Below, one piece after another: positions 20,211 to 59,753 of a stretch of 64,000 nt of DNA (the first letter of the stretch is position 1; each line of letters opens with the position of its first letter). The notes under the pieces are model-generated. The model worked only from the letters and a program-made list of their open reading frames with translations. It had not been told where the DNA came from and made no database searches. The translations under genes were made by a program, and so were the position numbers. The stretch is from Dasania sp. GY-MA-18 (GTDB lineage Bacteria > Pseudomonadota > Gammaproteobacteria > Pseudomonadales > Dasaniaceae): NCBI RefSeq assembly GCF_024734385.1, contig NZ_JANHAP010000007.1:178418-242417 (forward strand), written 5' to 3'.

Positions 20211-20234
20211 GCTAAGCGCAGCCAGGGTATGAAA

Positions 20235-21626: not shown

Positions 21627-21720
21627 CCAGTATTGATAAACAGGCTGGCGCTTCTAGTCAGCCTTTGATGATTTGTTGTGAATGTGTTTTTTATAATTAC
21701 GTGTATCGTAAGAGGTTATT

Positions 21721-32258: not shown

Positions 32259-32321
32259 CTAGTCGCTAGTTCAAAGTCTCTAGTTTTTTCTAGCGACTAG
32301 AGGCTATGAACTAGCGACTAG
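32259..32321. terminator. Long hairpin between convergent genes, built from CTAGTCGCTAG-type repeats
   Basis: Outer arms CTAGTCGCTAGTTCA (32259-32273) and TGAACTAGCGACTAG (32307-32321) are perfect complements, and pairing continues inwards for about ten more bases with one mismatch and wobble pairs around a TTTTTTC loop region. It overlaps the stop codon of the minus-strand gene. It probably terminates both convergent transcripts; its internal repeats suggest a repeated element rather than a simple terminator. Confidence 0.7.
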
Positions 32322-35827: not shown

Positions 35828-36469
35828 TTATAAGTCTATGTGCTGCGGAAACATCGCTGCTAAATAGGCTCTGGCCACGCGTTTGGCATTTTTGCGATTA
35901 AAGGCGGCGGGGGTGATTAATAGGTCTAACCACAGGCCTTCGACTATGGCGGTATAGCCCTTGGTAACAGTGTCGGCATCGGGGCCCTGGTAGTTGCCTT
36001 CTTCAATAATCTCTTGAAACAGGGTACTAATAGAGGACTCAGTGGCGGAGTCTGATTCCGCGCAGATTTTTTGGTAAGTGGGGCGGGACTTGGCCTCGCC
36101 CCAAAAGCCAAACCACACCGCCAGTTTATCTTTTTGGCAGACCTTGGCACTAAAGTCGAAAGCCAGGTGATCTTCTAAAATCTCTTGCGTGGTTTTAGTG
36201 CTACGCTTCTTGAGTATCTTGGCTTGGCCTTCATTGTATTCGTCCACCACAAAGCGCAGGGTTTCTACTAATAGATTGTTTTTACTCTGAAAATGTAAGT
36301 TGACTATGCCTAGACTCAGCCCTGCCTCGGTGGTGATGTCGGCCATGGTGATATTGGATAGGCCTTTATTGGCGATGCAGCTAATCGTGGCTTTGATCAA
36401 CTGTATGCGGCGGTCCTGTTTAGGCATGGCGCGGCGCTTGCGGCTAGGGCTGGCGGTGGTTTTAGTCAT
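35828..36469 (-). CDS. TetR-family repressor, BetI-like
   Basis: 213 residues. Helix-turn-helix at about residues 20-66 (RRIQLIKATISCIANKGL, SLGIVNLHFQSKNNLL). The ligand domain has the pattern of the choline-sensing repressor BetI: AVWFGFWGEAKSRP near residue 116 and IVEGLWLDLL near residue 182 parallel BetI's W..FW and IDGLWL blocks. That similarity is from memory, so the ligand is only suggested to be a quaternary or methylated amine. It is transcribed with the MATE gene and away from the FAD/GcvT cassette, and a palindromic operator lies between, so it probably controls both sides. Confidence 0.9.
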   Translation of the reverse strand: MTKTTASPSRKRRAMPKQDRRIQLIKATISCIANKGLSNITMADITTEAGLSLGIVNLHFQSKNNLLVETLRFVVDEYNEGQAKILKKRSTKTTQEILEDHLAFDFSAKVCQKDKLAVWFGFWGEAKSRPTYQKICAESDSATESSISTLFQEIIEEGNYQGPDADTVTKGYTAIVEGLWLDLLITPAAFNRKNAKRVARAYLAAMFPQHIDL

Positions 36470-36622
36470 GTGTGGCTGGTCCGGGTCCAGTTGTTATTAG
36501 GTAATAAAGCTATAGGCCAATAGGGCGCAAATAGCGGCCATTATATCCGATCATCGGGCTAATGGGGGTAGCTTGTGTGGAAACAATACACTGTATAGCT
36601 AATGTTGCTCTATATATCAATG

Positions 36623-36636
36623 AATGAACGTTCATT
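36623..36636. promoter_or_regulatory. Palindromic TetR-type operator
   Basis: AATGAACGTTCATT is a perfect 14-bp palindrome located 154 bp upstream of the TetR start codon and about 100 bp upstream of the FAD oxidoreductase start at 36736. Its form is typical of TetR-family sites, so the divergent BetI-like repressor is the obvious binder. Confidence 0.8.
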
Positions 36637-36735: not shown

Positions 36736-38355
36736 GTGAAAAAATATGATGCTATAGTCATCGGTGCAGGGCATAACGGCCTCACCAATGCAGCATACCT
36801 AGCGAAGGCTGGGTTAGATGTATTGGTGTTGGAGATGAACTCCTACATCGGTGGTGCCACGGTTAGCCGTGAGCTGCACAAAGATTGGAAGTACACCAAC
36901 TGTTCTTATGTGTGCGGTCTGTTAAGGCCCGAAATTAACCGCGACCTAGAATTGCCCCGTCACGGCCTGCAAGTCGTGCCCTATGGTGGCGGTGTGACCT
37001 TTATGGAAAATGGCGACTACTATGGCAACTTCTCTGACCATAATCGCCAGCACCGTGAAATGGCCAGGCACTCAGTACGCGATGCCAATGCTTACGAGCG
37101 TTACGGCGCCGACGTAACCAAACAAACCCGCCTTATACGTAAATTTTTATTGCGCACGCCACCCGATCCCGCCTCTTGGAAAATGAGCGACATCAAAGAG
37201 ATGATGGTGCTGGCCAAAACCGTGATGGATATGAAAACCGATGTTAACTTTGGCGATACGCTAAAGTACTGGACCAAGTCGGTGGGCGACTTTTTGGATG
37301 AGTATTTTGAGTCCGACATTATTAAAGCCCACTTAGGCGGCACCGGCATCATCGGTACCGCGTTGGGGGTTTACTCGCCGGGTACAGCTTATGTATTGCT
37401 GCATCACTATATGGGCGACGTAGATGGCACCGCTGGCGCTTGGGGTTTTACCCGTGGTGGCATGGGCGCGGTGGCCAATGCTTTGGCTAGCTCTTTTAAA
37501 TCCTTTGGCGGCGAGATACGTACCGATGCCAAAGTAAAACAAATTATGGTTAGAAACGGTAAGACTACCGGTGTGGCCTTAGAGGATGGCACGGAGTTTT
37601 ACGCCGACATCGTGGTGTCTAACCTAGAGGCCAAGCGTACCTTCTTGGGCATTATGGATGAGAAAGACCTGCCTGAGTACGTAATAGAAAGAGCCAAAAA
37701 CTTTAAGTCGCGGGGCTCTTCCGGCAAGGTTAATATTGCCTTAGATGGCCTGCCCACTTTCCCTGCGCTCCCCAAGGGCACGCCACTGATGGCCGGTGAC
37801 TTTCACTTTACCGATTCGTTAACGCGTATGGAAAAAGCCTACGACGATTGGAAAGATGGTAACTTCTCGCGCGACCCCTATGTGGATACCTTAATCCCCA
37901 CTTTAACAGACCCCACCATGGCGCCTCCGGGTAAGCATATGATGACCTGTTTTGTGCAGTACTGTCCGCCTAAAATACAGGGCCGTGAGTGGACGGATGC
38001 CGATAGAGATGCCTTTGGCCAAACGGTTATTGACCAGGTCGCGAATTACAGCCCCGATTTTAAAGATTTAATTTTACACGCGGAAGTTCGTACCCCCCGT
38101 GAAATTGAAGCCGAGATAGGCTTAACCGAAGGTAATATATTCCAAGGTGAATTAACTTTCGATCAGCTGTTCTCAAATAGACCCTTCCCTGGATACGGTC
38201 AGTATAGAGGCCCGGTTAAAGGCATGTATATGTGTGGCTCCAGCACCCACCCCGGTGGTGGTGTAATGGCGGCACCTGGTGCCAATGCCGCGCGTGAAAT
38301 ACTGATAGATTTAAAACGAAATAATACAGTTCCAGAGGGCTATGCAGATGACTAA
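36736..38355 (+). CDS. PYROXD2/phytoene-desaturase-like FAD oxidoreductase (cassette A, first subunit)
   Basis: 539 residues from the GTG at 36736, with GGAG eight bases upstream; the paralogue at 54672-56288 also starts at KKYDAIVIGAGHNG, supporting this over the ATG at 36709. The FAD-binding Rossmann motif VIGAGHNGLTNAAYL is at residues 6-20, and the C-terminal FAD clamp YMCGSSTHPGGGVMAAPGAN is near 500. The fold is the amine-oxidase/phytoene-desaturase type closest to PYROXD2. It would oxidise a C-N or C-C bond. It is the first gene of a tight operon with a second such protein (8-bp overlap) and a GcvT-like protein. Substrate unproven; regulation by the BetI-like repressor is likely. Confidence 0.88.
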   Translation: MKKYDAIVIGAGHNGLTNAAYLAKAGLDVLVLEMNSYIGGATVSRELHKDWKYTNCSYVCGLLRPEINRDLELPRHGLQVVPYGGGVTFMENGDYYGNFSDHNRQHREMARHSVRDANAYERYGADVTKQTRLIRKFLLRTPPDPASWKMSDIKEMMVLAKTVMDMKTDVNFGDTLKYWTKSVGDFLDEYFESDIIKAHLGGTGIIGTALGVYSPGTAYVLLHHYMGDVDGTAGAWGFTRGGMGAVANALASSFKSFGGEIRTDAKVKQIMVRNGKTTGVALEDGTEFYADIVVSNLEAKRTFLGIMDEKDLPEYVIERAKNFKSRGSSGKVNIALDGLPTFPALPKGTPLMAGDFHFTDSLTRMEKAYDDWKDGNFSRDPYVDTLIPTLTDPTMAPPGKHMMTCFVQYCPPKIQGREWTDADRDAFGQTVIDQVANYSPDFKDLILHAEVRTPREIEAEIGLTEGNIFQGELTFDQLFSNRPFPGYGQYRGPVKGMYMCGSSTHPGGGVMAAPGANAAREILIDLKRNNTVPEGYADD

Positions 38356-39913
38356 ATCATACGATGTCGTGATGGTCGGTGGTGGCCATAACGGTTTAAT
38401 TTGTGCGACCTATTTGGCAAAAGCCGGTCGCCGAGTATTGGTGTTAGAGGCCAATGAACAATTGGGCGGCGGTGCTGCTACCCGTGAATTTCACCCGGGC
38501 TTTTCAGTGTCGGCTTGTGCGCAGTGGATGTACTCCCTAAACCCCACCATTGCCAAGGATTTAAATTTAGCTAGCCATGGTTTGCAATACGCGGCTAAAA
38601 ATTTACATTCTATCGCTTTGGCCAAAGATGCTAAGCACGTCACCATTACCGGTGAAGGCGGAGTGGAAGGTGTGTCGGCGCAAGATAAAGCCGCCTACAG
38701 GGAATTTCGCCGTAAAATGGGCAAGTTTTCTAAATTATTAGATAAGCTCTTTACCGTGCGCCCACCGAAAGTGATAGAAAACAATTGGACCGACCGCATC
38801 AACCTTTTAAAAATAGGTTTAGGTGTTAAGTTATTAGGCAAGGCCGACATGTACGAGTTACTGCGTCTGGGCTTAATCAATATGTTTGATGTGATGGAAG
38901 AAACTTTTGATGATGAACTATTAAAATCATTAATCAGTTTTGATGGCGTATTAGGCGCACACATGGGGCCGCGCTCACCGGGTACGGTTTACGGTTACTT
39001 ATACCGCCACATGGGTGATGTTTACGGCTTTAACGGCCCAGCCTTAGTAAAAGGTGGTATGGGTAGCGTAGGTGTGGCCCTGGCCAATGCTGCTACGGCT
39101 GCCGGCGTAGAAATACGCAGTGCCGCCAGAGTAAAAAGCATAGACCTAACCGCCGAGCGCGCTAGCGGCGTAACCTTAGAAAATGGCGAAAGCATTAGCG
39201 CTACCCTAGTGGTATCCAATGCCGATCCTAAAACCACCTTTAATAACTTAGTGGGTAGACGCAACCTAGAAACGAATACCGTACGCCGGGTTAAAAACTT
39301 CCGCACCAAAGCTAGTGCCGCCAAATTACATCTAGCGTTAGATGGCTTGCCAGAGTTTACCGGCCTAAGCGCTGGGCAAGTGGGCAACCGCTTAGTGATA
39401 GCACCGGATATGCATCACATAGAGCGCGCGTTTAACTGTGCGAAGTATGGTGAGTTTTCCACGGCGCCGGTGTTGGATATCAGCATAGCCACCGTGCACG
39501 ATAAAGGTTTGGCGCCTGAGGGTAAGCATGTGTTGTCGGCGATAGTGCAGTTTGCGCCGGGGCAATTAAAAGCAGGTTGGACGGAAGCAACTAAAAATGC
39601 CTTTAAAGAATTAGCCATCAATACCATTGCTGATTATGCCCCCGGTATTAAAGAGCTAATCATTGCCAGCGAATTGTTAACCCCTGCTGATTTAGAGGGT
39701 GAATACAATATGACCGATGGCCACTGGCATCACGGTGATATTAGCTTGGATCAAGTAGTCATGATGCGACCCTTCCCAGGCTCGGAGCAATACGGCACGC
39801 CAGTTGATGGCCTCTACCTTTGCGGTGCTGGTGCACATCCGGGTGGTAATGTGATGGGCTTGGCGGGTAAAAATGCTGCCAATGAAATTATAAAAAGAGG
39901 AGGTTCCGCATGA
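38348..39913 (+). CDS. PYROXD2/phytoene-desaturase-like FAD oxidoreductase (cassette A, second subunit)
   Basis: 521 residues from ATG 38348 (GAGGG eight bases upstream; ATG 38342 is too close to it). FAD motif VGGGHNGLICATYLAKAG near residue 10 and C-terminal LCGAGAHPGGNVMGLAGKN near 495. It is homologous to the first subunit but clearly a different subfamily, with its direct counterpart at 53129-54679 in cassette B. It overlaps its upstream neighbour by eight bases and the downstream GcvT-like gene by four bases (ATGA), implying translational coupling and probably a heteromeric complex. Confidence 0.88.
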   Translation: MTKSYDVVMVGGGHNGLICATYLAKAGRRVLVLEANEQLGGGAATREFHPGFSVSACAQWMYSLNPTIAKDLNLASHGLQYAAKNLHSIALAKDAKHVTITGEGGVEGVSAQDKAAYREFRRKMGKFSKLLDKLFTVRPPKVIENNWTDRINLLKIGLGVKLLGKADMYELLRLGLINMFDVMEETFDDELLKSLISFDGVLGAHMGPRSPGTVYGYLYRHMGDVYGFNGPALVKGGMGSVGVALANAATAAGVEIRSAARVKSIDLTAERASGVTLENGESISATLVVSNADPKTTFNNLVGRRNLETNTVRRVKNFRTKASAAKLHLALDGLPEFTGLSAGQVGNRLVIAPDMHHIERAFNCAKYGEFSTAPVLDISIATVHDKGLAPEGKHVLSAIVQFAPGQLKAGWTEATKNAFKELAINTIADYAPGIKELIIASELLTPADLEGEYNMTDGHWHHGDISLDQVVMMRPFPGSEQYGTPVDGLYLCGAGAHPGGNVMGLAGKNAANEIIKRGGSA

Positions 39914-41115
39914 GTGAGGTCAGCGTTCAACAAGCTAATGATAGAGAAACGATGTTAATACATACACCGTTTCATTCGCGCTCTTCAGCCTTAAACAAAT
40001 TGAACTCGTGGGAAAACTGGAAAGGCTTTATGGTTGCCCATGAATACGATGATTATGAGTTAGAGTACTTTGCCATACGCAGCCAAACCGGTGTTATGGA
40101 CTTAACCCCCATGACCAAGTACCGCATCACCGGCCCCGATGCAGAAGCTTATTTAAATCGGCTGGTGACGCGCGACGTCACTAAAATTAAAGTGGGCCGC
40201 GTAGGCTACACCGTGTGGTGTAACTCTGATGGCCAGGTGATGGACGACGGCACGATTTTTCACTTAGCGGAAGATGAGTACCGTTTATGCTCCTACACCC
40301 ATTGCATAGACTGGTTAATGTGGTCGGCCGAAGGCTTTGATGTAGAGATAGTTGATGAAACCAAACAGGTAGCCGCACTGGCGGTGCAAGGCCCCACCTC
40401 TTGCTCTTGCCTAATGGCCATGGGTTTAGAAGGTATAGAAAATCTTAAGCCTTTTGGTCTCACCACCTTCCCATTTGAAGGCGGTGAGTTAATGGTTAGC
40501 CGCACCGGTTTTACGGGTGACTTAGGTTATGAGCTATGGGTAGAGCCTGCACTAGCCGAAGCGCTATGGGATCAGTTATTTGCCGCGGGTAAGCAATACC
40601 TGATCCGCCCCTTTGGTTTATACGCCTTGGATATGGCGCGCAAAGAGGCTGGCTTTATACAGGCCGCGGTAGACTTTGTGCCCGCCGAAGACCAGGTGCG
40701 CGTAGGCAGAACCCGCTCGCCTTTTGAGATAGGCTTGGGTTGGTTGGTGGATTTTAACAAGCCCTTTTTCAATGGCCGCAAGGCTTTGCTTAAAGAGAAA
40801 GAAAACGGTTCCCGCTATCGTTTTGTGATGTTAGATATTGAAGGTAATAAGCCGGCTAACAACTCTTTTATACTCAACAAAAAAGGTAAAGTCATAGGCA
40901 CTGTCACCTCGGCAGGCTGGTGCCCCAGCGCCAAGGCCAATGTGGCCTTTGGGCAGGTGGATGCCAAGTACGGCGAGATAGGTGAAGAGTTAATTACCGA
41001 GATATATTACGAGCGTGAGCTACACTGGACTAAGGTATTAGCTAAAAGCGTGGTAGTAAAAGGGCCTATGTACGATCCCCCAAGAAGAAGAGCAACACCG
41101 CCGGCACCCTTTTAA
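39910..41115 (+). CDS. GcvT/DmdA-like folate-binding aminomethyltransferase family protein (cassette A)
   Basis: 401 residues, ATG 39910 with GAGGAGG upstream. It shows the glycine-cleavage T-protein fold: YFAIRSQTGVMDLTPM near residue 52, YLNRLVTRDVTKIKVGRVGYT near 80, the VMDDGTI acidic pair near 114, SRTGFTGDLGYELW near 198 and PFEIGLGWLVDF near 272. The family transfers a methyl, methylene or aminomethyl group to tetrahydrofolate; relatives include dimethylsulfoniopropionate demethylase and the folate domain of sarcosine/dimethylglycine dehydrogenases. Coupled to two FAD oxidoreductases, it could capture the one-carbon unit released by oxidative demethylation. Its counterpart is at 51903-53126. 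Confidence 0.88.
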   Translation: MSEVSVQQANDRETMLIHTPFHSRSSALNKLNSWENWKGFMVAHEYDDYELEYFAIRSQTGVMDLTPMTKYRITGPDAEAYLNRLVTRDVTKIKVGRVGYTVWCNSDGQVMDDGTIFHLAEDEYRLCSYTHCIDWLMWSAEGFDVEIVDETKQVAALAVQGPTSCSCLMAMGLEGIENLKPFGLTTFPFEGGELMVSRTGFTGDLGYELWVEPALAEALWDQLFAAGKQYLIRPFGLYALDMARKEAGFIQAAVDFVPAEDQVRVGRTRSPFEIGLGWLVDFNKPFFNGRKALLKEKENGSRYRFVMLDIEGNKPANNSFILNKKGKVIGTVTSAGWCPSAKANVAFGQVDAKYGEIGEELITEIYYERELHWTKVLAKSVVVKGPMYDPPRRRATPPAPF

Positions 41116-41197: not shown

Positions 41198-42586
41198 ATG
41201 AGCAAAACAGCAAACCCTGAGTTAGAGGCTTTTTTAGAGAACAACCCCGAGATACAAATGCTGGAGGTGCTAATACCGGATATGAACGGTATTTTGCGCA
41301 CTAAACGTATACCTCGCTTGGAGTTTGCGACCTTCTTTAAAGGAAACTTAAAAGCCGTTACCACTATGCCGTTAGTCAATACTATGGGTGATTACAACAC
41401 CGATATAGGCAAAGAGTACCTCAGTGGCGACCCTGATAAATCCATGAAGGCCATACCCAATACCCTGGCAACTGTGCCCTGGTTAAAATCGCCCACCGGT
41501 CAGGTGATGGCGAGCATTACTAACCTCGATGGTACGCCGGGCATGTATGACCCCAGAAATATTTTAGAAAAACTATTGCAAGACCGTTTCTACGCCAAAG
41601 GTTTAAAACCCATAGTGGCAACCGAAATGGAATTTTACTTGCTGGAGCAAAGTGATGATGCCAAGCCCAGAGTTAAGCTAGGCCGCATACATGGCACCGG
41701 TTTAAAACAGCAGGGCGTGCAATATGCCATGGCCGATGAGTTGTGGGAAAACGACGAGTTCTTAAATGACGTACGCTTAGCCTGTGAGTTGCAGGGCGTG
41801 CCTATGACCACCATACATTCCGAGTTTTCGCCCGGCCAGTTAGAAATTAACGTGCATCATGTAGAGGATCCACTGGTAGCCTGTGACCACGCCGTGTTAC
41901 TAAAGCGCATTATTAAAGGCGTGGCCTTACAACACGGTATGGCGGCCTGCTTTATGGCCAAGCCCTATGCCGAGCTAGCGGGCAATGGCATGCACATGCA
42001 TGTTAGCGTGTACGATAAAGACGGTAATAATATTTTTGTTGAGCCCGGCTCAGAGCAAGTGCCACCACTAAACGATACCATGCGCCACGCTATTGGTGGC
42101 CTGGCCGATACCATGTCGGATTGCATGGCGGTGTTTGCGCCTAATGCCAACTCCTACCGCCGTTTGGTGCCGGGTGCCTATGCGCCGGTGTCTACCGCCT
42201 GGGGTTACAACCACCGCGATGTGTCGCTGCGCATACCCACATCGGGCAGCAAAGACTTACGCATAGAGCATAGGGTAGCCGGTGCCGACACCAACCCTTA
42301 CCTCGCCATGGCCTGTGTATTAATGGGCATAGATTACGGCATGGAAAATAAATGCCAGCCCCATGGCGAGATGGTGCAAGGGGGTGAATTTTTAGGTGAG
42401 ATGGATGTAGACATCCCCATCACTTGGGAAGCCGCACTGGACGCCTTTGATGCCAGCACTATTGTTAAGGGCTATTTGGGTGAGGAATACTGCGGTTTGT
42501 TTTCGCAGATACGCCGCGATGAATGCGATGCCTTCCGTGCCATCGTATCCAATGTGGATTACGAGTGGTATTTACGAGCGGTTTAA
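41198..42586 (+). CDS. Glutamine-synthetase-like gamma-glutamyl-amine ligase (PuuA type)
   Basis: 462 residues. The GlnA fold is clear: beta-grasp region to about residue 110, then ATP/metal motifs EMEFYLLE near 148, the EFSPGQLEIN segment near 208, GNGMHMHVS near 266, PNANSYRRLVPGAYAP near 315 and RIEHRVAGADTNPYLA near 350. The sequence resembles gamma-glutamylpolyamine synthetase PuuA more than true glutamine synthetase. It would use ATP to join glutamate to an amine. It lies 82 bp after the GcvT-like gene, so probably in the same operon. The PuuC-like dehydrogenase at 18714 and the amidotransferase at 58991 could supply later steps. The amine substrate is unknown. Confidence 0.9.
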   Translation: MSKTANPELEAFLENNPEIQMLEVLIPDMNGILRTKRIPRLEFATFFKGNLKAVTTMPLVNTMGDYNTDIGKEYLSGDPDKSMKAIPNTLATVPWLKSPTGQVMASITNLDGTPGMYDPRNILEKLLQDRFYAKGLKPIVATEMEFYLLEQSDDAKPRVKLGRIHGTGLKQQGVQYAMADELWENDEFLNDVRLACELQGVPMTTIHSEFSPGQLEINVHHVEDPLVACDHAVLLKRIIKGVALQHGMAACFMAKPYAELAGNGMHMHVSVYDKDGNNIFVEPGSEQVPPLNDTMRHAIGGLADTMSDCMAVFAPNANSYRRLVPGAYAPVSTAWGYNHRDVSLRIPTSGSKDLRIEHRVAGADTNPYLAMACVLMGIDYGMENKCQPHGEMVQGGEFLGEMDVDIPITWEAALDAFDASTIVKGYLGEEYCGLFSQIRRDECDAFRAIVSNVDYEWYLRAV

Positions 42587-42852: not shown

Positions 42853-43599
42853 ATGACCACTCTAACCGAACAAACCCGCAAAGTTGCCCAGCAATACCGT
42901 AAGTTTTGGCAGCAGGGCGATCTGGACGGCATACTCTCTATACTCTCACCCAATGCCGAATACATTACCTTTTCTGGGGCCAAACAAGTGCGCGCTAAAG
43001 ACGTGCAAACCTACGTTAAAATTTCCTTGCCTACCGCACTGCTAGATTATATTTATCACGATGAAGTAAGAGTGGATGGCGATACTGCTTTTTCTACTTA
43101 TAGCTTTGTTTATATCTCGCCCATTAGTGGCAAAAAAAGTAGTTGCCGTGGCTGTGACGTGATGACTATACGCGATGGCAAAATCATACGCGTGCACGAA
43201 TACAGTTCTTTTGCTGAGCTGGGCAAAGAGGGCGGGCGCAGTGATTTGGGTAAAATCGCCTTAGATGAGGCTAGCATTAATGCGATAGTAAGAGACACCC
43301 AGGCGTATTTTAAAACTCAGCCCTACTTAAACCCTGAGCTGAGTTTAGACGATGTGGCTAAGGCCACAGGCTACAGCCGTAATCAGCTATCTTATGTGTT
43401 TAACCAGGTTTTTGACTTGTCGTTTTATCAATATATTAATAACGCCAGAGTTGATTATTTTATTAGCCAATTACAGCAGCCCTGCCGCAATATTACCGCA
43501 TTAGCGACGGAGTCTGGCTTTAGTTCTATGACGACTTTTTATAAGTTTTTTAAACAAAAAACCGATTTAACCCCCAAACTTTATATGCAACAGCTATAA
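42853..43599 (+). CDS. SnoaL-like domain fused to an AraC DNA-binding domain
   Basis: 248 residues. Residues 1-125 form a SnoaL/NTF2-like cone (start QYRKFWQQGDLDGILSILSP, later VMTIRDGKIIRVHEY), a fold that usually binds a small hydrophobic or polar ligand. Residues 150-248 form an AraC-type double helix-turn-helix (LSLDDVAKATGYSRNQLSYVF and ITALATESGFSSMTTFYKFFK). AraC regulators normally carry a cupin or OruR-type sensor, so this sensor is unusual. It lies between the ligase and the Rieske oxygenase gene on the same strand and probably activates the oxygenase at 43720. Confidence 0.85.
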   Translation: MTTLTEQTRKVAQQYRKFWQQGDLDGILSILSPNAEYITFSGAKQVRAKDVQTYVKISLPTALLDYIYHDEVRVDGDTAFSTYSFVYISPISGKKSSCRGCDVMTIRDGKIIRVHEYSSFAELGKEGGRSDLGKIALDEASINAIVRDTQAYFKTQPYLNPELSLDDVAKATGYSRNQLSYVFNQVFDLSFYQYINNARVDYFISQLQQPCRNITALATESGFSSMTTFYKFFKQKTDLTPKLYMQQL

Positions 43600-43719: not shown

Positions 43720-44874
43720 ATGTCTAAACAAGAATTGCGATACAACGGCCTCACCGAACTCAAAGAAACCCTGCCGGTAGACTGGTATTTTGACCCAGCA
43801 CACTACCAGCGTGAGCTGGAGGTGATTTGGTATAAAAACTGGGTTTACGTCTGCAGAGCTGACGCCTTGGCTCAGCCTCGCGCTTTTCGCACCCAGCAAA
43901 TTGGTAGCCAAAATATTTTAGTGTTGCGTACCGAAGAGGGCAGCTTGCAAGCCTTCCACAATACCTGTCGCCACAGAGGTTCGGTATTAGTAACAGAAAC
44001 CGAAGGTGTGATGCGCTCTAAAAATATTATGTGCCCCTATCATAATTGGACCTATAACCAGCAGGGTGAATTAATTCGTACCCCTTCAAAGCAGTGCCCT
44101 AGCGCATTCAACATGGCTGAACACTCACTGTATGACGTAGCCGTGGTGGACTGGAATGGCTTTGTGTTTGTTAATTTAGCGGGCCAAGATGCCCAAGCTA
44201 TAGAGCAATGCATAGGTGCAGGCGCTAATGCCTTTGCCAATTGGCCGGCGGCAGATTTAAAAGTGGGGGCCAGCTATAGCAAAACCATGGACTGCAACTG
44301 GAAAGTATTTTGGGAAAATTATAATGAGTGCCTACACTGCCCCGGCGTACACAAAGATTTAAGTAAACTGGTACCCATTTACCGCCGCAACTACATGACA
44401 CCCTATGACGATCCTAACTGGCAACAAAACCTCACTAGCGACGACCCTGCTCTGCGTGGTGGTATGCGTACTGGGGCGCAAACCTGGACTACAGATGGTC
44501 AGCCTATAGGCAATGTATTCCCCAATTTAAGTGATGAGGAAAGAGCGCGCGCCTTTACCTATGTGGATGTGCAGCCAACAGCCTTTATTGTCGGCCACGT
44601 CGACTATATGCGTATTGTGCGCATTATGCCGCTAGGCCCAGAGAAAACCGAAATACAGGCCGAGTGGCTGTTTATGGAAGAAACTTTAAATGACCCAAAC
44701 GTAGATATTGCCCCCGCAGTAGATTTTGTGAAACAGGTGATGGCCGAAGATGCCCATGTCTCGGAGTTAAACCAAGCGGGTATGCGCTCTATACGCCATA
44801 AAAAAGGCAGCTTAATGCCCGAGGAGTATGCGGTGCATGATTTTCAAAACTGGGTGAGGGCGCAGTTGCGCTAA
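43720..44874 (+). CDS. Rieske non-heme iron oxygenase, alpha subunit
   Basis: 384 residues; ATG 43720 with AGGGGAGTG upstream. Rieske cluster ligands C83, H85, C105 and H108 (CRHRG ... CPYHNW). Catalytic iron ligands H206 and H211 in ENYNECLHCPGVH, with Glu E203 at the usual bridging-Asp position, as in carnitine/betaine-type enzymes. It should monooxygenate a quaternary or N-methylated amine. Associated with cassette A and preceded by the SnoaL-AraC regulator gene; no reductase or ferredoxin follows, so it must borrow electrons, perhaps from the pair at 11505/13060. An ATTGATTATCAA element (43670-43681) lies upstream and may be a regulator site. Confidence 0.9.
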   Translation: MSKQELRYNGLTELKETLPVDWYFDPAHYQRELEVIWYKNWVYVCRADALAQPRAFRTQQIGSQNILVLRTEEGSLQAFHNTCRHRGSVLVTETEGVMRSKNIMCPYHNWTYNQQGELIRTPSKQCPSAFNMAEHSLYDVAVVDWNGFVFVNLAGQDAQAIEQCIGAGANAFANWPAADLKVGASYSKTMDCNWKVFWENYNECLHCPGVHKDLSKLVPIYRRNYMTPYDDPNWQQNLTSDDPALRGGMRTGAQTWTTDGQPIGNVFPNLSDEERARAFTYVDVQPTAFIVGHVDYMRIVRIMPLGPEKTEIQAEWLFMEETLNDPNVDIAPAVDFVKQVMAEDAHVSELNQAGMRSIRHKKGSLMPEEYAVHDFQNWVRAQLR

Positions 44875-51902: not shown

Positions 51903-53126
51903 TTAAGTATCCGCAGGCGGCGTTTGCTTGGCTCTAGCGGGGGCCCAAAAAGGTTTTGTTTTTTTAGTGCATTTGCACACTTTACGTATCCAACGTAATT
52001 CTTTTTGGTGATACACCTCGGCATAAATAGGGCCGTCGGCATATTTCCCTTCTACCAATCCCAAAGCGATATTGGCTTTAACCACCGGCGACCACATGGC
52101 CGAGGTGACATAGCCAATTTGTTTTTGGCAGGCCGCATCGCGGTATAAAATGGCGCTTTCGGCGGCTTTGTTGCCTTCTATATCCAGTTTTAATAAGCGT
52201 CTATGTTTACCCGCTTGTTTTTCTTTTAATAAAGCGGCCCTGCCGGTGAAGTGGCCTTTGTTAAAATTCACTATCCAGCTTAATGCCATTTCAAAAGGCG
52301 AGTGATCGTTGCCCTTATCCATGGTGTGTAAGGCGGGGTGAAAGTCCACGTAAGGGCTTAAAAAGCCAGCTTCTAGGCGCGCTTTTTCCAGCGATTCTAA
52401 ACCTAAGGGCTGCACGCCAAAGATTTTGCCGGTACTAAATACATCATCCCAAAGGGCAATAGCATTTTTAGGGTCTATCCATAATTCATAGCCCAGGTCG
52501 CCGGTAAAGCCAGTGCGGGAAATCATGATTTCGCCATCCAGGTAAGGGAACTTGACTATGTCAAAAGGCTTGGCATTTTCAATGCCTTTAAACCCCATGG
52601 CTTTTAATAGCGCGCAGGAGGTGGGGCCTTGTATAGCCAGTGCCGCAAGTTCGTGGCTCATGTCGGTAATGTCAACATGGTCGAAACCGACTTTGGCTAA
52701 TTGAAACCAATCCATATTCGGCTCGGCACAGGTGAGCATGAATTCATCCTGTGACAAGCGAAATATAGTGCCGTCATCAATGATGCGGCCAGCATCGGTA
52801 CACCAAATATTGTATTGCACTGTATTAACCGGGTGCTTAGTCACATCGCGGGTCACCATGCGGTTAAGCATGGCTTCGGCGTCTGGGCCTTTAAAGCGAT
52901 ACTTGTTCATGGGCGATACGTCTAACACGCCGCAAGTGTTGCGGGTAGAGAAGTATTCTAAGTGCTCGTCCCTATAATAATTGGCGGCTAAAAAGCCATT
53001 CCACTCCTCCCATGCCTGGTTAAAGTTTAAGGGCGATGTGCGCTCGTGAAAAGGCGAACCCAGCGAACCGTTGGGTACGTGAGCAATCTGCTCGGGCTTT
53101 AATAAATTTGCGATAGTTAGAGGCAT
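51903..53126 (-). CDS. GcvT/DmdA-like folate-binding aminomethyltransferase family protein (cassette B)
   Basis: 407 residues, GAGGAGAAATA ribosome site before ATG 53126. Clear homologue of 39910-41115 along its length: YFSTRNTCGVLDVSPMNKY, MLNRMVTRDVTKHPVNTVQYN, the RIIDDGTI acidic pair, SRTGFTGDLGYELW and PFEMALSWIVNF. The C-terminal tail carries several Cys and Lys residues (KVCKCTKKTKP) absent from the other copy. It lies two bases after the second FAD oxidoreductase gene and ends the operon before a terminator. Role as in cassette A: probably takes a one-carbon unit to tetrahydrofolate. Confidence 0.88.
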   Translation of the reverse strand: MPLTIANLLKPEQIAHVPNGSLGSPFHERTSPLNFNQAWEEWNGFLAANYYRDEHLEYFSTRNTCGVLDVSPMNKYRFKGPDAEAMLNRMVTRDVTKHPVNTVQYNIWCTDAGRIIDDGTIFRLSQDEFMLTCAEPNMDWFQLAKVGFDHVDITDMSHELAALAIQGPTSCALLKAMGFKGIENAKPFDIVKFPYLDGEIMISRTGFTGDLGYELWIDPKNAIALWDDVFSTGKIFGVQPLGLESLEKARLEAGFLSPYVDFHPALHTMDKGNDHSPFEMALSWIVNFNKGHFTGRAALLKEKQAGKHRRLLKLDIEGNKAAESAILYRDAACQKQIGYVTSAMWSPVVKANIALGLVEGKYADGPIYAEVYHQKELRWIRKVCKCTKKTKPFWAPARAKQTPPADT

Positions 53127-53128
53127 GC

Positions 53129-54679
53129 TTATTTCTCCTCTTTGAGTATGTAGTTAGCAGCGTTGGCACCGGCTGCGCCCATGATGCCGCCACCCGGATG
53201 GGAGCCAGCACCGCAATTATAAAAGCCTGCAACCGGCGACTTATATTGTGAGGCCCCGTAAGCAGGGCGGTTCATCCACCAAGCATCAATCGCAAACTCA
53301 CCGTGGTGCCAGTGGCCGCCGGTAACGCGAAATTGCTGTTCTAAATCTACCGGGGTGAGTAATTCGCTGGCCACAATTTGTGAGCGTATATCGGGTGCGT
53401 ATTGCTCTAAGGTTTTTATAACGTTTTCTAGCAGTGTGCTGCGATGGGCATCCCAACCGCCTGCTATATCGTAGGGTGTGTATTGCACTTGTATAGAAAC
53501 TACATGCTTACCCGCCTCAGCCAAACTGTTATCGTGCAGTGAGGGCACAATAACTTCTAATGCTAAATCTTCGCCTAAGCCTTTGTACTTAGCCTGGTCA
53601 AACGCGTTTTCTATGTATTGCATAGTCGGCGCAATAATTATGCGGCCATTGGCTTTGTTTAGGCCAGTAAACTTAGGCTCAGCATTTAAGGCCAAATGTA
53701 CTTTTGACACCAGGCCGTTCATGCGCAGGCGGTTGATGCGTTGGGTAAACTCCACATCTAAATGCTGAACACCTAGCAGCTTAAAGAAACTGGTTTTAGG
53801 ATCAGTGTTAGAAATAATATGGTTGGCAGAAATGCTTTCACCATTTTCTAAACTAACACCCGTGGCCTGCATATCTTGAACAATAACGCTGGCCACAGGG
53901 CTGCCTGTGCGTATTTCTGCGCCATAGGCTTTAGCAGATTTTGCTAAGGCGTTAATTAAACCGCCTACGCCACCTTTGGGTAAAGGCAGTTCGCCATTAC
54001 CAGACATATCGCCAGACATTTTTAACAGTTGGTTAAGCACGGCATTGTTAGGCGAGCGCGGTGCCAGCTTATTACCCACGTTGTAATCCCAGCTTAAGGC
54101 GGCTTTTAATAATGGGGTTTCAAAAAACTCATCCATCATGTCTTGCGCGGGTAGGAAAATCATACGCATAAATTCGCGCATATCGGTTTTACCTAAGCTG
54201 CGTACTTTAAGGCCAAACATGCCCAGCGTGGATGCATCTTTAAAGCCGCCATCGGTCATTACCGGTGGCGTTTTATGCCAGGTGGCATCCATGGTATCGG
54301 CAAAGCGGCCTAGTAAGCGCTTATAGGCTTGGTAGGATTCGGCATCTGCTGCACTGGCACCTTGCACCTCGCCATTGGCGATAGTGATGTGCTGGCCTGC
54401 CGGTGACAATGCCACCGTGGCTAAAGAGTTAGCCGCTAGTTCAAAGCCGTGTTTACGTAGCTGTAAGTCATTAACTAACTTGTTGGTGAGCTGCGGCAGT
54501 GTGTGTGCCACCGAGGCTTTAAAGCCGGGGGCAAACTCTCTAGTGGCGCCTAAGCCGCCTAGTTGCTCTGCGGCTTCTAATACCAGAACTTTTTTACCCG
54601 CTTTGGCTAAGTAGCCTGCGCAAGCGAGACCGTTGTGGCCGCCACCAATAATGATGGCGTCATAATGTTTATTATTCAT
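53129..54679 (-). CDS. PYROXD2/phytoene-desaturase-like FAD oxidoreductase (cassette B, second subunit)
   Basis: 516 residues. FAD motif IIGGGHNGLACAGYLAKAG near residue 10; C-terminal NCGAGSHPGGGIMGAAGAN near 490. Its best relative here is 38348-39913 (shared TREF.PGF, RSPG/RSPN, NADPKT/NTDPKTSF and DGHWHHG/GGHWHHGEF blocks). It overlaps the first FAD gene by eight bases and is separated from the GcvT-like gene by two bases, the same tight layout as cassette A. Confidence 0.88.
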   Translation of the reverse strand: MNNKHYDAIIIGGGHNGLACAGYLAKAGKKVLVLEAAEQLGGLGATREFAPGFKASVAHTLPQLTNKLVNDLQLRKHGFELAANSLATVALSPAGQHITIANGEVQGASAADAESYQAYKRLLGRFADTMDATWHKTPPVMTDGGFKDASTLGMFGLKVRSLGKTDMREFMRMIFLPAQDMMDEFFETPLLKAALSWDYNVGNKLAPRSPNNAVLNQLLKMSGDMSGNGELPLPKGGVGGLINALAKSAKAYGAEIRTGSPVASVIVQDMQATGVSLENGESISANHIISNTDPKTSFFKLLGVQHLDVEFTQRINRLRMNGLVSKVHLALNAEPKFTGLNKANGRIIIAPTMQYIENAFDQAKYKGLGEDLALEVIVPSLHDNSLAEAGKHVVSIQVQYTPYDIAGGWDAHRSTLLENVIKTLEQYAPDIRSQIVASELLTPVDLEQQFRVTGGHWHHGEFAIDAWWMNRPAYGASQYKSPVAGFYNCGAGSHPGGGIMGAAGANAANYILKEEK

Positions 54680-56288
54680 CGACGTCGTCCTTAGGAACTG
54701 TGTTGGGGCGTTTTAAATCCAGTAAAATTTCACGGGCCGCGTTAGCGCCGCAGGCTGAGGATACGCCGCCGCCGGGGTGGCTACCTGAACCGCACATATA
54801 CATACCTTTGGCGGGGCCGCGGTACTGTGAGTAGCCTGGGAAGGGGCGGTTAAACATCAGCTGGTCTAAGGTGAGCTCGCCCTGGAAAATATTACCTTCG
54901 GTTAGCCCTACTTCGTTTTCAATTTCATAGGGGGTGCGTACTTCTTTATGCACAATAAAATCGCGGAAGTTGGGGCTGTACTGGCTGATTTGGTTTATCA
55001 CCGTTTCACCAAAGGCCTCGCGTTTTTCTGGCGTCCAACCGCCTTCAATTTCTGCTGGGCAGTATTGAATAAAACAAGAAACAAAATAGTTACCCGGTGC
55101 GGCGTGAGTTGGGTCCCAAATAGAAGACTGGGTCATTTCAATAAAGGGATCTTCCGACCAGCGGCCGTGCTTCCAATCATCGTAGGCTTTTTCCATGCGG
55201 TCGCGGGTATCCAAAAACTGCATAGAGCCGTTGCGCAACATATGATCTTTGGGCATAGAGGGCCAGTCAGGCATGCCGTTTAAGGCGATGTTGACCTTGC
55301 CTGATGAGCCGCGAATTTTAAAGTTGGTGGCTTTTTTGTGCAGGTCTTCGGGTATGTCTTCCCTGTTCATAATCTTGGTAAAGGTACGTTTAGGATCAAG
55401 ATTAGAAACCACTATGTCTGCGTAAATCTCGTTGCCATTTTCTAAGGCGACACCGCGGGCTTTGTTGTTTTTAACAATGATTTTATCCACCGGCGCATTT
55501 GTCATAATCTCACCGCCGTGCTCTTTAAGGGCGCTGGCGATGGCATTGGAGATAGCACCCATACCACCACGGGCCAAGCCCCATGCACCTACCGCGCCGT
55601 CTACGTCACCCATTACATGGTGCAGTAATACATAGGCGGTGCCCGGTGAGTACACGCCCAGTGCGGTGCCGATAATGCTGGAGGTGGCTAAGGTGGTTTT
55701 AATCAGTTCGTTTTCAAAGTATTCATCCAAAAAGTCACCGCAGCTCATAGTCATAAAGCGGATAAATTCGCAAATATCTTTTTCGCTCATGTCTAAAAAC
55801 TTTTTCGCCATAAAGGCCATTTCGCTGATGTCGCGCGGCTTAAAAGACGTAGGGTCGGCTGGGGTGCGCAACATAAAGTGGCGAATAAACTTTGCGTAGC
55901 GCATCAAGTCGGAATAAAAACGATTGGAAGCATCGGCGTCGCGCTTAGAGTGACGCGCGTACTCACGGTACATCATGGCGTGATCGTGATACTCGGCTAT
56001 GTAATCACCGTTGCGGGCAAAGTTGGTATTGCCGGAATAGGGCACTACCATTAAGCCGTGGCGGGTTAAATCCAAGTCGCGGTGTATGGATTGGCGCAGC
56101 AGGCTACACACATAGGAGCAGTTTGAATAAATCCAGCCCGGGTGTAGCTCGCGGCTTACCGCGGCGCCGCCTATATAGTCATTTTTTTCTACCACCAACA
56201 CGTTCAAGCCAGACTTGGCGAGATACGCGGCATTGGTTAGGCCGTTGTGGCCAGCTCCAATAACAATGGCATCATATTTTTTAGCCAT
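54672..56288 (-). CDS. PYROXD2/phytoene-desaturase-like FAD oxidoreductase (cassette B, first subunit)
   Basis: 538 residues from ATG 56288, with GAGGAAG upstream; a longer reading to 56453 would add 55 low-quality residues overlapping the divergent gene. FAD motif VIGAGHNGLTNAAYLAKSG at residues 7-25; C-terminal YMCGSGSHPGGGVSSACGAN near 500. It is closely similar to 36736-38355 (shared VSRELH, NCSYVC.LLR, YSPGTAYVLLHH, TEGNIFQGELT.DQL). First gene of cassette B, divergent from the AraC regulator at 56409 with 120 bp between starts. Confidence 0.9.
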   Translation of the reverse strand: MAKKYDAIVIGAGHNGLTNAAYLAKSGLNVLVVEKNDYIGGAAVSRELHPGWIYSNCSYVCSLLRQSIHRDLDLTRHGLMVVPYSGNTNFARNGDYIAEYHDHAMMYREYARHSKRDADASNRFYSDLMRYAKFIRHFMLRTPADPTSFKPRDISEMAFMAKKFLDMSEKDICEFIRFMTMSCGDFLDEYFENELIKTTLATSSIIGTALGVYSPGTAYVLLHHVMGDVDGAVGAWGLARGGMGAISNAIASALKEHGGEIMTNAPVDKIIVKNNKARGVALENGNEIYADIVVSNLDPKRTFTKIMNREDIPEDLHKKATNFKIRGSSGKVNIALNGMPDWPSMPKDHMLRNGSMQFLDTRDRMEKAYDDWKHGRWSEDPFIEMTQSSIWDPTHAAPGNYFVSCFIQYCPAEIEGGWTPEKREAFGETVINQISQYSPNFRDFIVHKEVRTPYEIENEVGLTEGNIFQGELTLDQLMFNRPFPGYSQYRGPAKGMYMCGSGSHPGGGVSSACGANAAREILLDLKRPNTVPKDDVDE

Positions 56289-56408: not shown

Positions 56409-57458
56409 ATGACCCGCTCCAAACCACAACCCGCCGTGACTGAGCAAAAACAACTACTGCACAGTCATGAAATTCAGCTACTTATTGCCGAACTGGTGCA
56501 GCAGCAAGCCGTGCCCTTAGAGTTGATACTAGAAGATACCGGAGTAAGTGCCAGAGCCTTGGAGAATCCCTCTTTAAGGCTGACCCTAGAACAGGAGCTG
56601 GCGCTGTATAAGCGTATTGCTAGCCTTAATACCAACCCCTTGTTAGCGCATAGAACAGGGGTAAAGCTGGGCCTGCCTAATTACGGTATTTTGGGTTATG
56701 CCATGGTGGCTTCACCCACTTTGCGCGACGCCTTGCAGCTAATGGTAGAGTTTGCTCCCTTGGTGAGCTGGGCTGCGCACAGTGTGTTGACTCAGGAAAG
56801 CTACCGTGGCGAGGCCTGCCTGTGCCTGACCATACATCCCACGCCCTCCGACGAGCGCACGTCGGTATTAGAGGTAGAGAGCACCTTTGCCTCTTTGCAA
56901 ACAGTGTTTAATGAGTTGGTGGCCGAGCGGGTTAGCTTTAACCGGGTGACCTACAGCCACCCTTGCCCAGTGCCCGATAGCCAGCCCTATGAAGAATTGT
57001 TCCAGTGCCCGGTAGATTTTTCTCAGCCCAAAAATAGCCTCTACCTGAGCAAAGCCCTATTGGCGCGGCGGCTGCCGCATGCCCAGCCCGAGCACGCTAG
57101 CCTATTAAAGGATTTATGCGCTGAGACACTGATTAGCCTACGCCAGGATAGGGGGCTGGTAGCGGCAATTAAGGCCTATATAGATGGCTATGAGCAAGGT
57201 GTACCCAGCCTGGATGAAACAGCCCAGTACTTTCATCAATCCTCTCGCACCCTGCGGCGGCATCTGCAGGCTCAGGGGCTATCCTTTAGAGGCTTGATTG
57301 ATGAGGCGCGCTATAGCTCGGCCAAACGCTACCTTAGCTCTACCAATTTAACAGTAGAAATTATAGGAAAAACATTAGGTTACGCTGATGTGCGCAGTTT
57401 TCGCACAGCCTTTAAGCGCTGGTCGGGGATGTCGCCAGCTGCCTACCGCGGGCGTTAG
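56409..57458 (+). CDS. AraC-family regulator with OruR/arabinose-binding-like N-terminal domain
   Basis: 349 residues. N-terminal OruR-type sensor (GLPNYGILGYAMVASPTLRDALQL near residues 97-120) and C-terminal AraC helix-turn-helix pair (SLDETAQYFHQSSRTLRRHL and IIGKTLGYADVRSFRTAFKRW). GGAGG ribosome site before the ATG. It is divergent from cassette B and 125 bp upstream of the Rieske gene on its own strand, so it is well placed to control both. Same subfamily as 48268-49320. Confidence 0.9.
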   Translation: MTRSKPQPAVTEQKQLLHSHEIQLLIAELVQQQAVPLELILEDTGVSARALENPSLRLTLEQELALYKRIASLNTNPLLAHRTGVKLGLPNYGILGYAMVASPTLRDALQLMVEFAPLVSWAAHSVLTQESYRGEACLCLTIHPTPSDERTSVLEVESTFASLQTVFNELVAERVSFNRVTYSHPCPVPDSQPYEELFQCPVDFSQPKNSLYLSKALLARRLPHAQPEHASLLKDLCAETLISLRQDRGLVAAIKAYIDGYEQGVPSLDETAQYFHQSSRTLRRHLQAQGLSFRGLIDEARYSSAKRYLSSTNLTVEIIGKTLGYADVRSFRTAFKRWSGMSPAAYRGR

Positions 57459-57583
57459 AAACAGTATTGTGATAACTGGCATTAAATGATCGTACAGAAA
57501 ACTATATACGTATTTAAATTGCTGTAGTATAGTTTTTCACCAGATATAAAGAGCTAATAGCAGCCGTTTAACTAAGGTGAGTG

Positions 57584-58990: not shown

Positions 58991-59701
58991 TTGAAAAAAG
59001 AAGTACTTATTTTTTTGCATATGAATGACGAGCACCCCGGTTATATTGCCGATTTTCTCGCGGCCAACAATATTCCCTATAGAGTCATACGCAGTTATAA
59101 CAACGAGCTGATACCGCAATTAGACGACAGCATGGCAGGCCTGGTATTTATGGGCGGTATAATGAGTGCCAATGATGACTTGCCCTGGATAAAACAAGAG
59201 CTGCGCTTAATTGAGCAGGCACTGGCTGCGGATGTGCCACTATTAGGGCATTGTTTGGGAGGGCAGCTAATTAGTAAAGTTTTAGGTCAAAGTATTAGTA
59301 AAAGCCCTGTTGCCGAAGTGGGCTGGCATAGGTGCCAAACACAGGATAACGCCATTGCTAAAGAGTGGTTAGGCGATTTAGATAATTTCCAAATGTTTCA
59401 CTGGCATTACGAAACCTTTTCTATACCTGAGCAAGCTACCCATATTTTTGCTACGCCACATTGTCGCAATCAGGCTTATGTTTACCGTGATAATGTATTG
59501 GCTATGCAATGTCATGTAGAGATGACAGCGCCTTTAGTGGTGTCGTGGGTAGACTCTTGGCCTGAAGGCTTGGTTAACGTGAGTGATAGTGAGCAAAATA
59601 TCATGCAAATAAAAGCGGATTTAAGCACTAAGATCGCGGAGATTAATATTGTGGCCGAGCAACTTTATAGCCGCTGGATACAGTCTTTAAAATCTTACTG
59701 A
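58991..59701 (+). CDS. Class I glutamine amidotransferase domain protein
   Basis: 236 residues, TTG start with GAGG six bases upstream. The nucleophile elbow GHCLGGQ (C88) and the partner pair H175-x-E177 (CHVEM) give a complete GATase1 triad. The domain hydrolyses glutamine or a gamma-glutamyl amide; stand-alone versions include gamma-glutamyl hydrolases. Here it lies between a Rieske oxygenase and an aminotransferase and could release a gamma-glutamyl group attached by the ligase at 41198, playing the part PuuD has in putrescine breakdown although it is not of the PuuD subfamily. This role is inference. Confidence 0.88.
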   Translation: MKKEVLIFLHMNDEHPGYIADFLAANNIPYRVIRSYNNELIPQLDDSMAGLVFMGGIMSANDDLPWIKQELRLIEQALAADVPLLGHCLGGQLISKVLGQSISKSPVAEVGWHRCQTQDNAIAKEWLGDLDNFQMFHWHYETFSIPEQATHIFATPHCRNQAYVYRDNVLAMQCHVEMTAPLVVSWVDSWPEGLVNVSDSEQNIMQIKADLSTKIAEINIVAEQLYSRWIQSLKSY

Positions 59702-59753
59702 TGCAGCGCTTGCAGTCTTACACCCAACAAATTAAACATTAGTGAGAACAGTG

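What the first reader, a model, noticed from the sequence alone, without database searches (positions are those of the whole stretch)
36736..41115. Translationally coupled FAD-FAD-GcvT cassette A, a possible undescribed oxidative demethylase complex
Two different PYROXD2-like FAD oxidoreductases overlap by eight bases, and the second overlaps a GcvT/DmdA-like folate-binding gene by four. Known amine demethylases such as sarcosine and dimethylglycine dehydrogenases fuse or pair a FAD oxidase with a GcvT-like folate domain; here the FAD part is of another family and present as two proteins. The layout suggests a heteromeric complex that oxidises an N-methyl (or related) group and hands formaldehyde-level carbon to tetrahydrofolate. 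I know of no characterised enzyme with this composition.
Basis: partly seen in the sequence, partly recalled or inferred. Interest (0 to 1): 0.82.

Follow-up and report, generated by a model that had tools for sequence, protein, structure and literature searches.

The report
Twin-flavoprotein folate N-demethylase module
Three tightly overlapping genes for two different flavin enzymes and a protein of the folate-binding GcvT type, kept together in many marine and plant-associated bacteria, are predicted to strip methyl groups from an unidentified nitrogen compound and would likely hand the carbon to folate.

Summary
Observation confirmed. FADa (36736-38355), FADb (38348-39913) and a GcvT-fold protein (39910-41115) overlap by 8 and 4 bases; a diverged second trio lies at 51903-56288. 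In two genome searches with FADa alone, all 24 other copies listed (10 in a Pseudomonadota sample, 14 in relatives) sit beside FADb and GcvT, in nine families, three in permuted order. New here: 37 of 40 gaps between FADa and a divergent BetI-like repressor gene hold a TGAA-N2/N6-TTCA operator-like motif (shuffled mean 0.42). In three of five relatives' genomes its exact long form occurs once, before FADa; in two Dasania genomes it also precedes two DAO-family oxidase genes, whose homologue is inside the SAR92 cluster. Recurrent neighbours (Rieske oxygenases, omega-aminotransferases, polyamine-type ABC transporters) point to N-methylated amine catabolism. The flavoproteins are CrtO-like, not the DAO type of known GcvT-linked demethylases; the GcvT is nearest TMAO demethylase. 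Best reading: a folate-coupled oxidative N-demethylase acting after a Rieske enzyme. Complex, folate use and substrate are untested. Glycine betaine is less likely: the genome has a separate soxBDAG. New variant of a known kind.

The parts
36736..38355 (+). FADa of cassette A: CrtO/PYROXD2-like FAD oxidoreductase, 539 aa (GTG start; alternative ATG 36709)
38348..39913 (+). FADb of cassette A: second CrtO-like FAD oxidoreductase, 521 aa (alternative ATG 38342)
39910..41115 (+). GcvT-fold protein of cassette A, nearest to the GcvT domain of TMAO demethylase
36619..36636 (.). Operator-like site AATGAATGAACGTTCATT, about 100 bases before FADa, between it and the BetI-like gene
35828..36469 (-). 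BetI-like TetR repressor, divergent from cassette A
   Evidence: PF13977 met, BetI cut-offs not met; a BetI-like gene lies by the trio in 10 of 10 phylum-sample loci, in one (L091) not divergent
41198..42586 (+). Glutamine-synthetase-like ligase (GlnA, PuuA and GlnIII models all below cut-off), probably a gamma-glutamyl-amine ligase
   Evidence: homologue near the trio in 22 of 47 genome loci
42853..43599 (+). SnoaL-like domain fused to an AraC-type DNA-binding domain (probable regulator)
43720..44874 (+). Rieske oxygenase alpha subunit (GbcA-like, below cut-off)
51903..53126 (-). GcvT-fold protein of cassette B
53129..54679 (-). FADb of cassette B
54672..56288 (-). FADa of cassette B (start by homology; longest open frame begins 56453)
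56409..57458 (+). AraC-family regulator, divergent from cassette B; homologues in 4 of 13 relatives' loci, each with a B-type trio
57581..58843 (+). Rieske oxygenase alpha subunit; nearest solved relatives include 4qup, named a demethylase; homologue inside the SAR92 cluster
58991..59701 (+). Class I glutamine-amidotransferase-like hydrolase, homologue inside the SAR92 cluster
59742..61139 (+). Class III omega-aminotransferase (PRK07036 model met), homologue inside the SAR92 cluster

Best explanation
Two different CrtO-like FAD oxidoreductases and a GcvT-fold protein are encoded side by side here and beside all 24 other FADa copies listed by two genome searches, and together they would likely act as a folate-coupled oxidative N-demethylase for a methylated amine. 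Shown: gene order, overlaps, family assignments, conservation of the trio, recurrent neighbours, and a conserved operator-like site. Inferred: (1) a Rieske oxygenase removes the first methyl from a quaternary or highly methylated amine; (2) FADa and/or FADb oxidise a remaining N-methyl to the iminium/formaldehyde level; (3) the GcvT protein receives that one-carbon unit and forms 5,10-methylene-THF; (4) the freed amine goes on by transamination (omega-aminotransferase) or gamma-glutamylation plus DAO oxidase plus GATase; (5) the BetI-like repressor senses the amine and controls cassette A through the AATGAATG-N4-TTCATT site. The substrate class judged most likely is an N-methylated diamine, polyamine or omega-amino acid, because many versions carry a polyamine-type ABC importer and Puu/Spu-like genes. 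Why two FAD proteins are needed is unknown; one may be catalytic and the other an electron-transfer or structural partner, or each may act on a different methylation state.
Against: No biochemical data. Leu240 and Phe117 replace two THF contacts of E. coli GcvT; the paper on Tdm suggests folate use there is probably vestigial (passages). Seven of the ten phylum-sample genomes belong to one family (f209), and near relatives recur among the loci, so tallies are not independent. This genome lacks a close homologue of the polyamine-type binding protein (best 28%), which weakens the polyamine reading for this strain. The exact operator-like sites precede only 2 of the 4 DAO homologues with 35% identity or more, and one exact site has no clear target. 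In G631 the control pattern hit twice against once for the site. FADa model is poor (pLDDT 68). Distantly related CrtO-like FADs occur without GcvT and one beside a single gcvT, so two FADs are not always needed. Similarity of the three proteins' distance matrices (Mantel r 0.92-0.97) is confounded by species descent.
Confidence: 0.58

Rival explanations
1. The GcvT protein only scavenges formaldehyde released by the Rieske demethylases (as proposed for DmmD), while FADa and FADb oxidise other C-N bonds of the demethylated amine; the three are pathway neighbours, not one enzyme.
For: DmmD as a formaldehyde scavenger is discussed in PMC5520151 (passages); Rieske genes recur beside the trio; putrescine oxidase and MAO share the FADb fold; CrtO-like FADs exist without GcvT.
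Against: No Rieske gene was detected near the trio in 3 of 10 extended phylum-sample loci (one of them cut by a contig end) whereas the trio was complete in 10 of 10; conserved overlaps of the three genes.
Confidence: 0.2
2. The GcvT protein works like DMSP demethylase, a direct methyl transfer from an onium compound to THF without redox, and the two FADs act on other steps such as desaturation of the carbon chain.
For: DmdA belongs to the same fold; the SAR92 cluster carries a CoA ligase whose nearest solved relative is a DMSP lyase and an acyl-CoA dehydrogenase; a Fuscovulum version carries a DMSP-lyase-family gene, with a homologue in G537.
Against: DmdA model score 136 against a cut-off of 410, below the scores for TMAO demethylase (263 of 1100) and GcvT (218 of 300); DmdA is not known to need flavoproteins (recalled).
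Confidence: 0.1
3. The cassette is a glycine betaine/dimethylglycine or sarcosine route.
For: BetI-like regulator and GbcA-like Rieske subunits.
Against: The genome has a separate soxBDAG with L-serine ammonia-lyase, all above NCBIfam cut-offs, and on the same contig C21 a true GcvT and another GbcA-like gene, itself below the GbcA cut-off; none of the window's three Rieske proteins nor the BetI-like protein reaches its glycine-betaine or BetI model cut-off.
Confidence: 0.06
4. The FADs are carotenoid enzymes and GcvT a housekeeping gene placed nearby.
For: Database names 'phytoene dehydrogenase-like'; best models CrtO and CrtI.
Against: CrtO 271 of 1000 and CrtI family 111 of 238 for FADa, below cut-offs; a true GcvT lies elsewhere; frequent co-occurrence with amine genes.
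Confidence: 0.02

Closest known systems
Dimethylglycine dehydrogenase/oxidase and sarcosine dehydrogenase
   Same: FAD amine oxidation linked to a GcvT-fold folate domain (4p9s and 1pj5 among the GcvT matches)
   Different: There a DAO-family FAD domain is fused to the GcvT domain (recalled); here two CrtO-like FAD proteins are separate genes.
Heterotetrameric sarcosine oxidase SoxBDAG and MgdABCD
   Same: Multi-gene FAD plus GcvT-domain system
   Different: SoxA model not met by the trio GcvT; the genome has a true soxBDAG elsewhere.
TMAO demethylase Tdm
   Same: Closest GcvT domain (E 1.1e-49; best model), with Leu and Phe at the same two folate-contact positions by alignment
   Different: Tdm has DUF1989-type metal-binding domains; no flavin (recalled).
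Dimethylamine monooxygenase DmmDABC
   Same: A separate GcvT-like protein (DmmD) in the operon of a demethylase
   Different: No DmmABC gene noticed among the neighbours; the DmmD-like protein beside a Paracoccus DmmA gene is 29% identical.
LSD1/KDM1 histone demethylase
   Same: FAD amine oxidase, N-demethylation with THF reported as acceptor
   Different: One protein, protein substrate, no GcvT partner (recalled).
Puu/Spu polyamine catabolism
   Same: PuuA-like ligase, GATase, class III aminotransferase, DAO oxidase and PotFGHI-like importer in the SAR92 version
   Different: The PuuA, PotF, PotG and PotI models are below cut-off, only the broader potA subfamily is met by the ATPase; demethylation genes are added.

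Membership tests
Glycine cleavage T protein (GcvT) | Score above gcvT model cut-offs (TIGR00528 236, NF001567 300) | tested here: not met
   167 and 218 bits
GCV_T fold (PF01571/PF08669) | Pfam gathering scores | tested here: met
   199.9 of 25.6 and 36.1 of 25.9
TMAO demethylase | Full-length model score and N-terminal metal domains | tested here: not met
   263 of 1100; only model positions 380-761 match
DMSP demethylase DmdA | NF009133 cut-off 410 | tested here: not met
   136 bits
Heterotetrameric sarcosine oxidase | SoxA model cut-off 1164 and SoxB/D/G partners | tested here: not met
   134 bits for the trio GcvT; the cassette genes are other families; true soxBDAG elsewhere
Dimethylglycine dehydrogenase type | DAO-type FAD domain fused to GcvT | tested here: not met
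   The GcvT gene is 401 aa with GCV_T domains only; open frames of FADa homologues are 538-676 aa, too short for a fusion
CrtO/CrtI carotenoid enzymes | Model cut-offs 1000 and 238 | tested here: not met
   FADa 271 and 111; FADb 248 and 134
Flavin amine oxidase superfamily (PF01593) | Pfam gathering score 19.8 | tested here: met
   60.4 and 69.3 bits; fold match for FADb
Folate-coupled oxidative N-demethylase (functional class) | THF-dependent conversion of N-CH3 to methylene-THF | not testable with these tools
   No activity data
Folate-coupled oxidative N-demethylase (functional class) | Folate-site residues of GcvT | tested here: inconclusive
   DD pair, Glu208, Arg244 and Glu246 kept; Leu240 and Phe117 replace two E. 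coli contacts
BetI repressor | NCBIfam BetI cut-offs 118 and 201 | tested here: not met
   106.5 and 105.4 bits; the TetR_C_6 domain is met
Glycine betaine monooxygenase GbcA | NF058607 cut-off 670 | tested here: not met
   168, 162 and 279 bits for the three window Rieske proteins
Gamma-glutamylputrescine synthetase PuuA | NF045547 cut-off 650 | tested here: not met
   205 bits

The most novel reading that the evidence does not exclude
An undescribed regulon, run by a BetI-like repressor through an AATGAATG-N4-TTCATT operator, equips marine gammaproteobacteria and rhizobia to eat N-methylated polyamines (for instance methylated polyamines from diatom silica), and its core is a three-protein flavin-flavin-folate channelling complex that evolved independently of the DAO-type demethylases.
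Probability: 0.17. Interest if true: 0.85.

Novelty: new variant of a known kind. Interest (0 to 1): 0.66.

Why it matters
SAR92, Halieaceae and Woeseiaceae genomes and rhizobial plasmids carry this module, so an unknown methylated nitrogen compound may be a shared food source in sea and rhizosphere. A second flavoprotein family coupled to a GcvT protein would be a separate evolutionary solution to oxidative demethylation. The conserved operator-like site gives a direct handle: the inducer of the repressor should reveal the substrate class.

Tried and rejected
Homarine as a lead: the 2026 Nat Microbiol paper is not held; a passage in another paper says that Mgd takes part in homarine use (PMC13390433); the homarine gene list was not seen, so homarine or a like compound is not excluded. 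Paper searches for this gene combination: 20 of 88 papers listed; none; 1; 3; nothing listed fits, judged by titles and abstract starts. (20 of 19,929 and 8 of 8 listed) showed no paper on homarine catabolism genes by title; others (12 of 31; 10 of 34) none on catabolism of methylated polyamines. Most subscription papers are missing from the library, so novelty in print is not established. Read as passages only: PMC12817926, PMC13390433, PMC12560246, PMC8437039, PMC5520151, PMC12206195, PMC4406087. PMC12206195 speaks of methylated long-chain polyamines in diatoms, which is the source of the diatom example.

Plasmid FAD hits at 37-38%: of three looked at, one sits beside gcvT and two do not. 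A site search with up to two mismatches in the window is no better than chance as a whole (6 found, 6.0 expected). FADa fold not used (poor model). A stretch at about 254-269 of GcvT looked trio-specific against Tdm and T protein, but the DmmD-like protein has one of like length, so it was dropped. Rows dropped: nine gaps of 500-1500 bases were left out and added. In the genomes that one search lists (31 of 398) only three candidates each were scored, so further copies may be missed.
Full report
Observation. The three genes are present at the stated coordinates with the stated overlaps. FADa begins at GTG 36736 behind an AAAGGAG sequence; its database entry is 539 aa. FADb begins at ATG 38348 (8-base overlap) or 38342 (14 bases). 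GcvT begins at ATG 39910 (4-base overlap). The window very probably comes from the genus Dasania: FADa is 95% identical to a Dasania marina protein on a contig of 1,008,263 bases, and the same-genus genome G614 has a contig of that length carrying a 95% identical copy.

A second trio, cassette B, lies on the minus strand at 51903-56288 (62%, 44% and 50% identical to A). Around both cassettes are two Rieske oxygenase genes, a glutamine-synthetase-like gene, a class I GATase-like gene, a class III aminotransferase, and BetI-like and AraC-type regulators. A further Rieske gene, a class III aminotransferase and an aldehyde dehydrogenase nearest PuuC (below cut-off) lie at 13.5-20.2 kb. Three of the six PF00848 Rieske subunits of the 3.8 Mb genome are in this window.

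Conservation. A scan of named genomes with the GcvT found 47 loci. In 44 both FADa and FADb lie upstream, complete or cut by a contig end; of the other three, two begin at a contig end inside GcvT (L043, L051) and one is a 5'-truncated GcvT without FADs (L046). That scan is biased to close GcvT relatives, so FADa alone was then used. In 398 Pseudomonadota genomes 10 besides this one have it at E up to 1e-140 (few candidates per genome were scored), and in 57 genomes of relatives 7 others have it, with 14 copies. All 24 copies have FADb and GcvT on the same strand within 4 kb. Nine families are covered (one of them the window's own), but seven of the ten phylum-sample genomes are one family. 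Seven plasmids have FADa at 59.8-64.1% identity and a GcvT match; six were fetched (L063-L068) and all six have the trio, with FADb of L067 in two frames. Of 77 trios counted (the window's two included, a broken FADa of L041 counted twice), 74 have the order FADa-FADb-GcvT, two FADb-FADa-GcvT and one GcvT-FADa-FADb; 76 have the same A/B label for all three members. Conserved company with changed order argues for joint function rather than frozen order.

Overlap positions recur in the loci, the plasmids and the window: a start at -8 or -14 in 49 of 50 FADa/FADb pairs, at -4 in 47 of 53 FADb/GcvT pairs; the six exceptions to the latter are cassette B, L032 (minus strand), L036 and the Woeseiaceae loci L045, L047 and L048.

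Neighbours. In the SAR92-type cluster (L022) the order is two PotI/PotH-like permeases, a PotG-like ATPase, a PotF-like binding protein, an acyl-CoA dehydrogenase and the BetI-like repressor on one strand, then FADa, FADb, GcvT, an ADP-forming CoA ligase (best match among solved structures: the DMSP lyase 7cm9), GS-like ligase, Rieske, DAO oxidase, GATase, class III aminotransferase and ureohydrolase on the other. The ATPase meets the polyamine potA subfamily cut-off and the aminotransferase the PRK07036 one; the binding protein, the permease scanned, the GS-like ligase and the Rieske protein do not reach the named models' cut-offs. In 47 genome loci, many cut by contig ends: Rieske 36, BetI-like 23, polyamine-type SBP 18, class III aminotransferase 22, GS-like 22, CoA ligase 22, acyl-CoA dehydrogenase 22, DAO 18, GATase 14, ureohydrolase 12. 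In the phylum sample with extended flanks: BetI-like 10 of 10 (in G234 not divergent), SBP 8 of 10, Rieske 7 of 10, aminotransferase 7 of 10 nearby and an eighth (G234) 28 kb away. In the 13 relatives' loci these are fewer: BetI-like 7, Rieske 5, SBP 2, aminotransferase 4, partly because several are B-type. The six plasmid loci have BetI-like, Rieske and SBP in 6 of 6 and aminotransferase in 5 of 6 by tblastn, the sixth by annotation. In this genome the closest SBP is only 28% identical, so the importer is not part of the Dasania version.

Regulation. The BetI/FADa gap holds AATGAATGAACGTTCATT at 36619-36636. TGAA-N2-or-N6-TTCA occurs in 37 of 40 gaps up to 1500 bases between FADa and a divergent BetI-like gene; base-shuffled gaps give a mean of 0.42, at most 4. 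For gaps under 500 bases it is 28 of 31, with 0.30 from shuffles and 0.61 from the loci's own background. The three without it are L013, L015 (near variant GAATGATCATTC) and L065. The loci include near relatives, so the 40 are not independent, but gamma- and alphaproteobacterial loci share the motif. The longer form ATGAATGNNNNTTCAT occurs exactly at four places in this genome; with up to one mismatch there are 7 forward and 7 reverse matches against 1 and 2 for the control. The four are before FADa; before a DAO gene on C15; before a DAO gene on C9 that is 58-60% identical to the SAR92 cluster's DAO; and at C9:204028, whose target is unclear. Two further DAO homologues of 44% and 35% have no exact site. 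In the second Dasania genome the same four kinds of place recur. In G625, G661 and G631 the only exact site lies 66-164 bases before FADa; G616 has one before FADa and one elsewhere without a cluster-type target; control hits were 0 in G614, G625 and G661, 1 in G616 and 2 in G631. So an oxidase that is inside the cluster in SAR92 is tied to cassette A by a shared site in Dasania. That the BetI-like protein binds the site is inferred.

Mechanism. Likely steps: Rieske removal of a first methyl; flavin oxidation of a remaining N-methyl; capture by GcvT as methylene-THF; transamination or gamma-glutamylation of the freed amine. LSD1, an FAD amine oxidase reported to bind THF and yield methylene-THF (PMC4406087, passages), is a precedent for the chemistry. 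Glycine betaine is disfavoured because soxBDAG with L-serine ammonia-lyase, a true GcvT and another GbcA-like gene (below cut-off) sit on contig C21. A carnitine-like or CoA-dependent variant is possible: a Shinella sumterensis plasmid has one CrtO-like FAD next to gcvT together with a CoA ligase, an enoyl-CoA hydratase, a 3-hydroxyacyl-CoA dehydrogenase and a 3-keto-5-aminohexanoate cleavage protein.

Novelty. FAD plus GcvT demethylases are known; this uses another flavoprotein family, as two proteins, with its own regulator and operator-like site. Nothing listed describes it (listings only, 24 papers seen in all), and the library lacks most subscription papers. I file it as a new variant of a known kind.

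Noticed in passing
L129 (Shinella sumterensis plasmid) 4995-7746: A single CrtO-like FAD gene directly before gcvT, with CoA ligase, enoyl-CoA hydratase, 3-hydroxyacyl-CoA dehydrogenase and a 3-keto-5-aminohexanoate cleavage protein gene: a one-FAD version of the module.
   Followed up: partly
L140 9805 and L141 9832: Exact copies of the cassette A operator-like site before two DAO-family oxidase genes far from the window; the same in the second Dasania genome (L153, L154).
   Followed up: yes
L128 4029-9086 and L155: A further exact operator-like site in a region with a third GcvT-like gene (37% identical), a long aminotransferase gene (804 aa) and a PotD/PotF-like binding protein; present in both Dasania genomes, target unclear.
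   Followed up: partly
L064 18392-18637 and other rhizobial loci: A small protein of about 81 aa follows GcvT in several rhizobial loci (tblastn); no Pfam match. Possibly an extra subunit.
   Followed up: partly
L047 9568-9978: A 136-aa open frame without Pfam match between FADb and GcvT in Woeseiaceae (also L045).
   Followed up: partly
window 13499-23145: A second amine-catabolism cluster: class III aminotransferase, MFS transporter, Rieske oxygenase, LysR regulator, aldehyde dehydrogenase nearest PuuC, amino-acid permease and aspartate ammonia-lyase.
   Followed up: partly
window 42853-43599: SnoaL-like domain fused to an AraC DNA-binding domain, between cassette A and a Rieske gene.
   Followed up: no
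window 4294-5862 and 32318-34315: Two TPR-repeat proteins with C-terminal sulfotransferase domains.
   Followed up: no
L067, L041, L046: Broken or truncated members: FADb in two frames (L067), FADa in two pieces (L041), 5'-truncated GcvT without FADs (L046).
   Followed up: no
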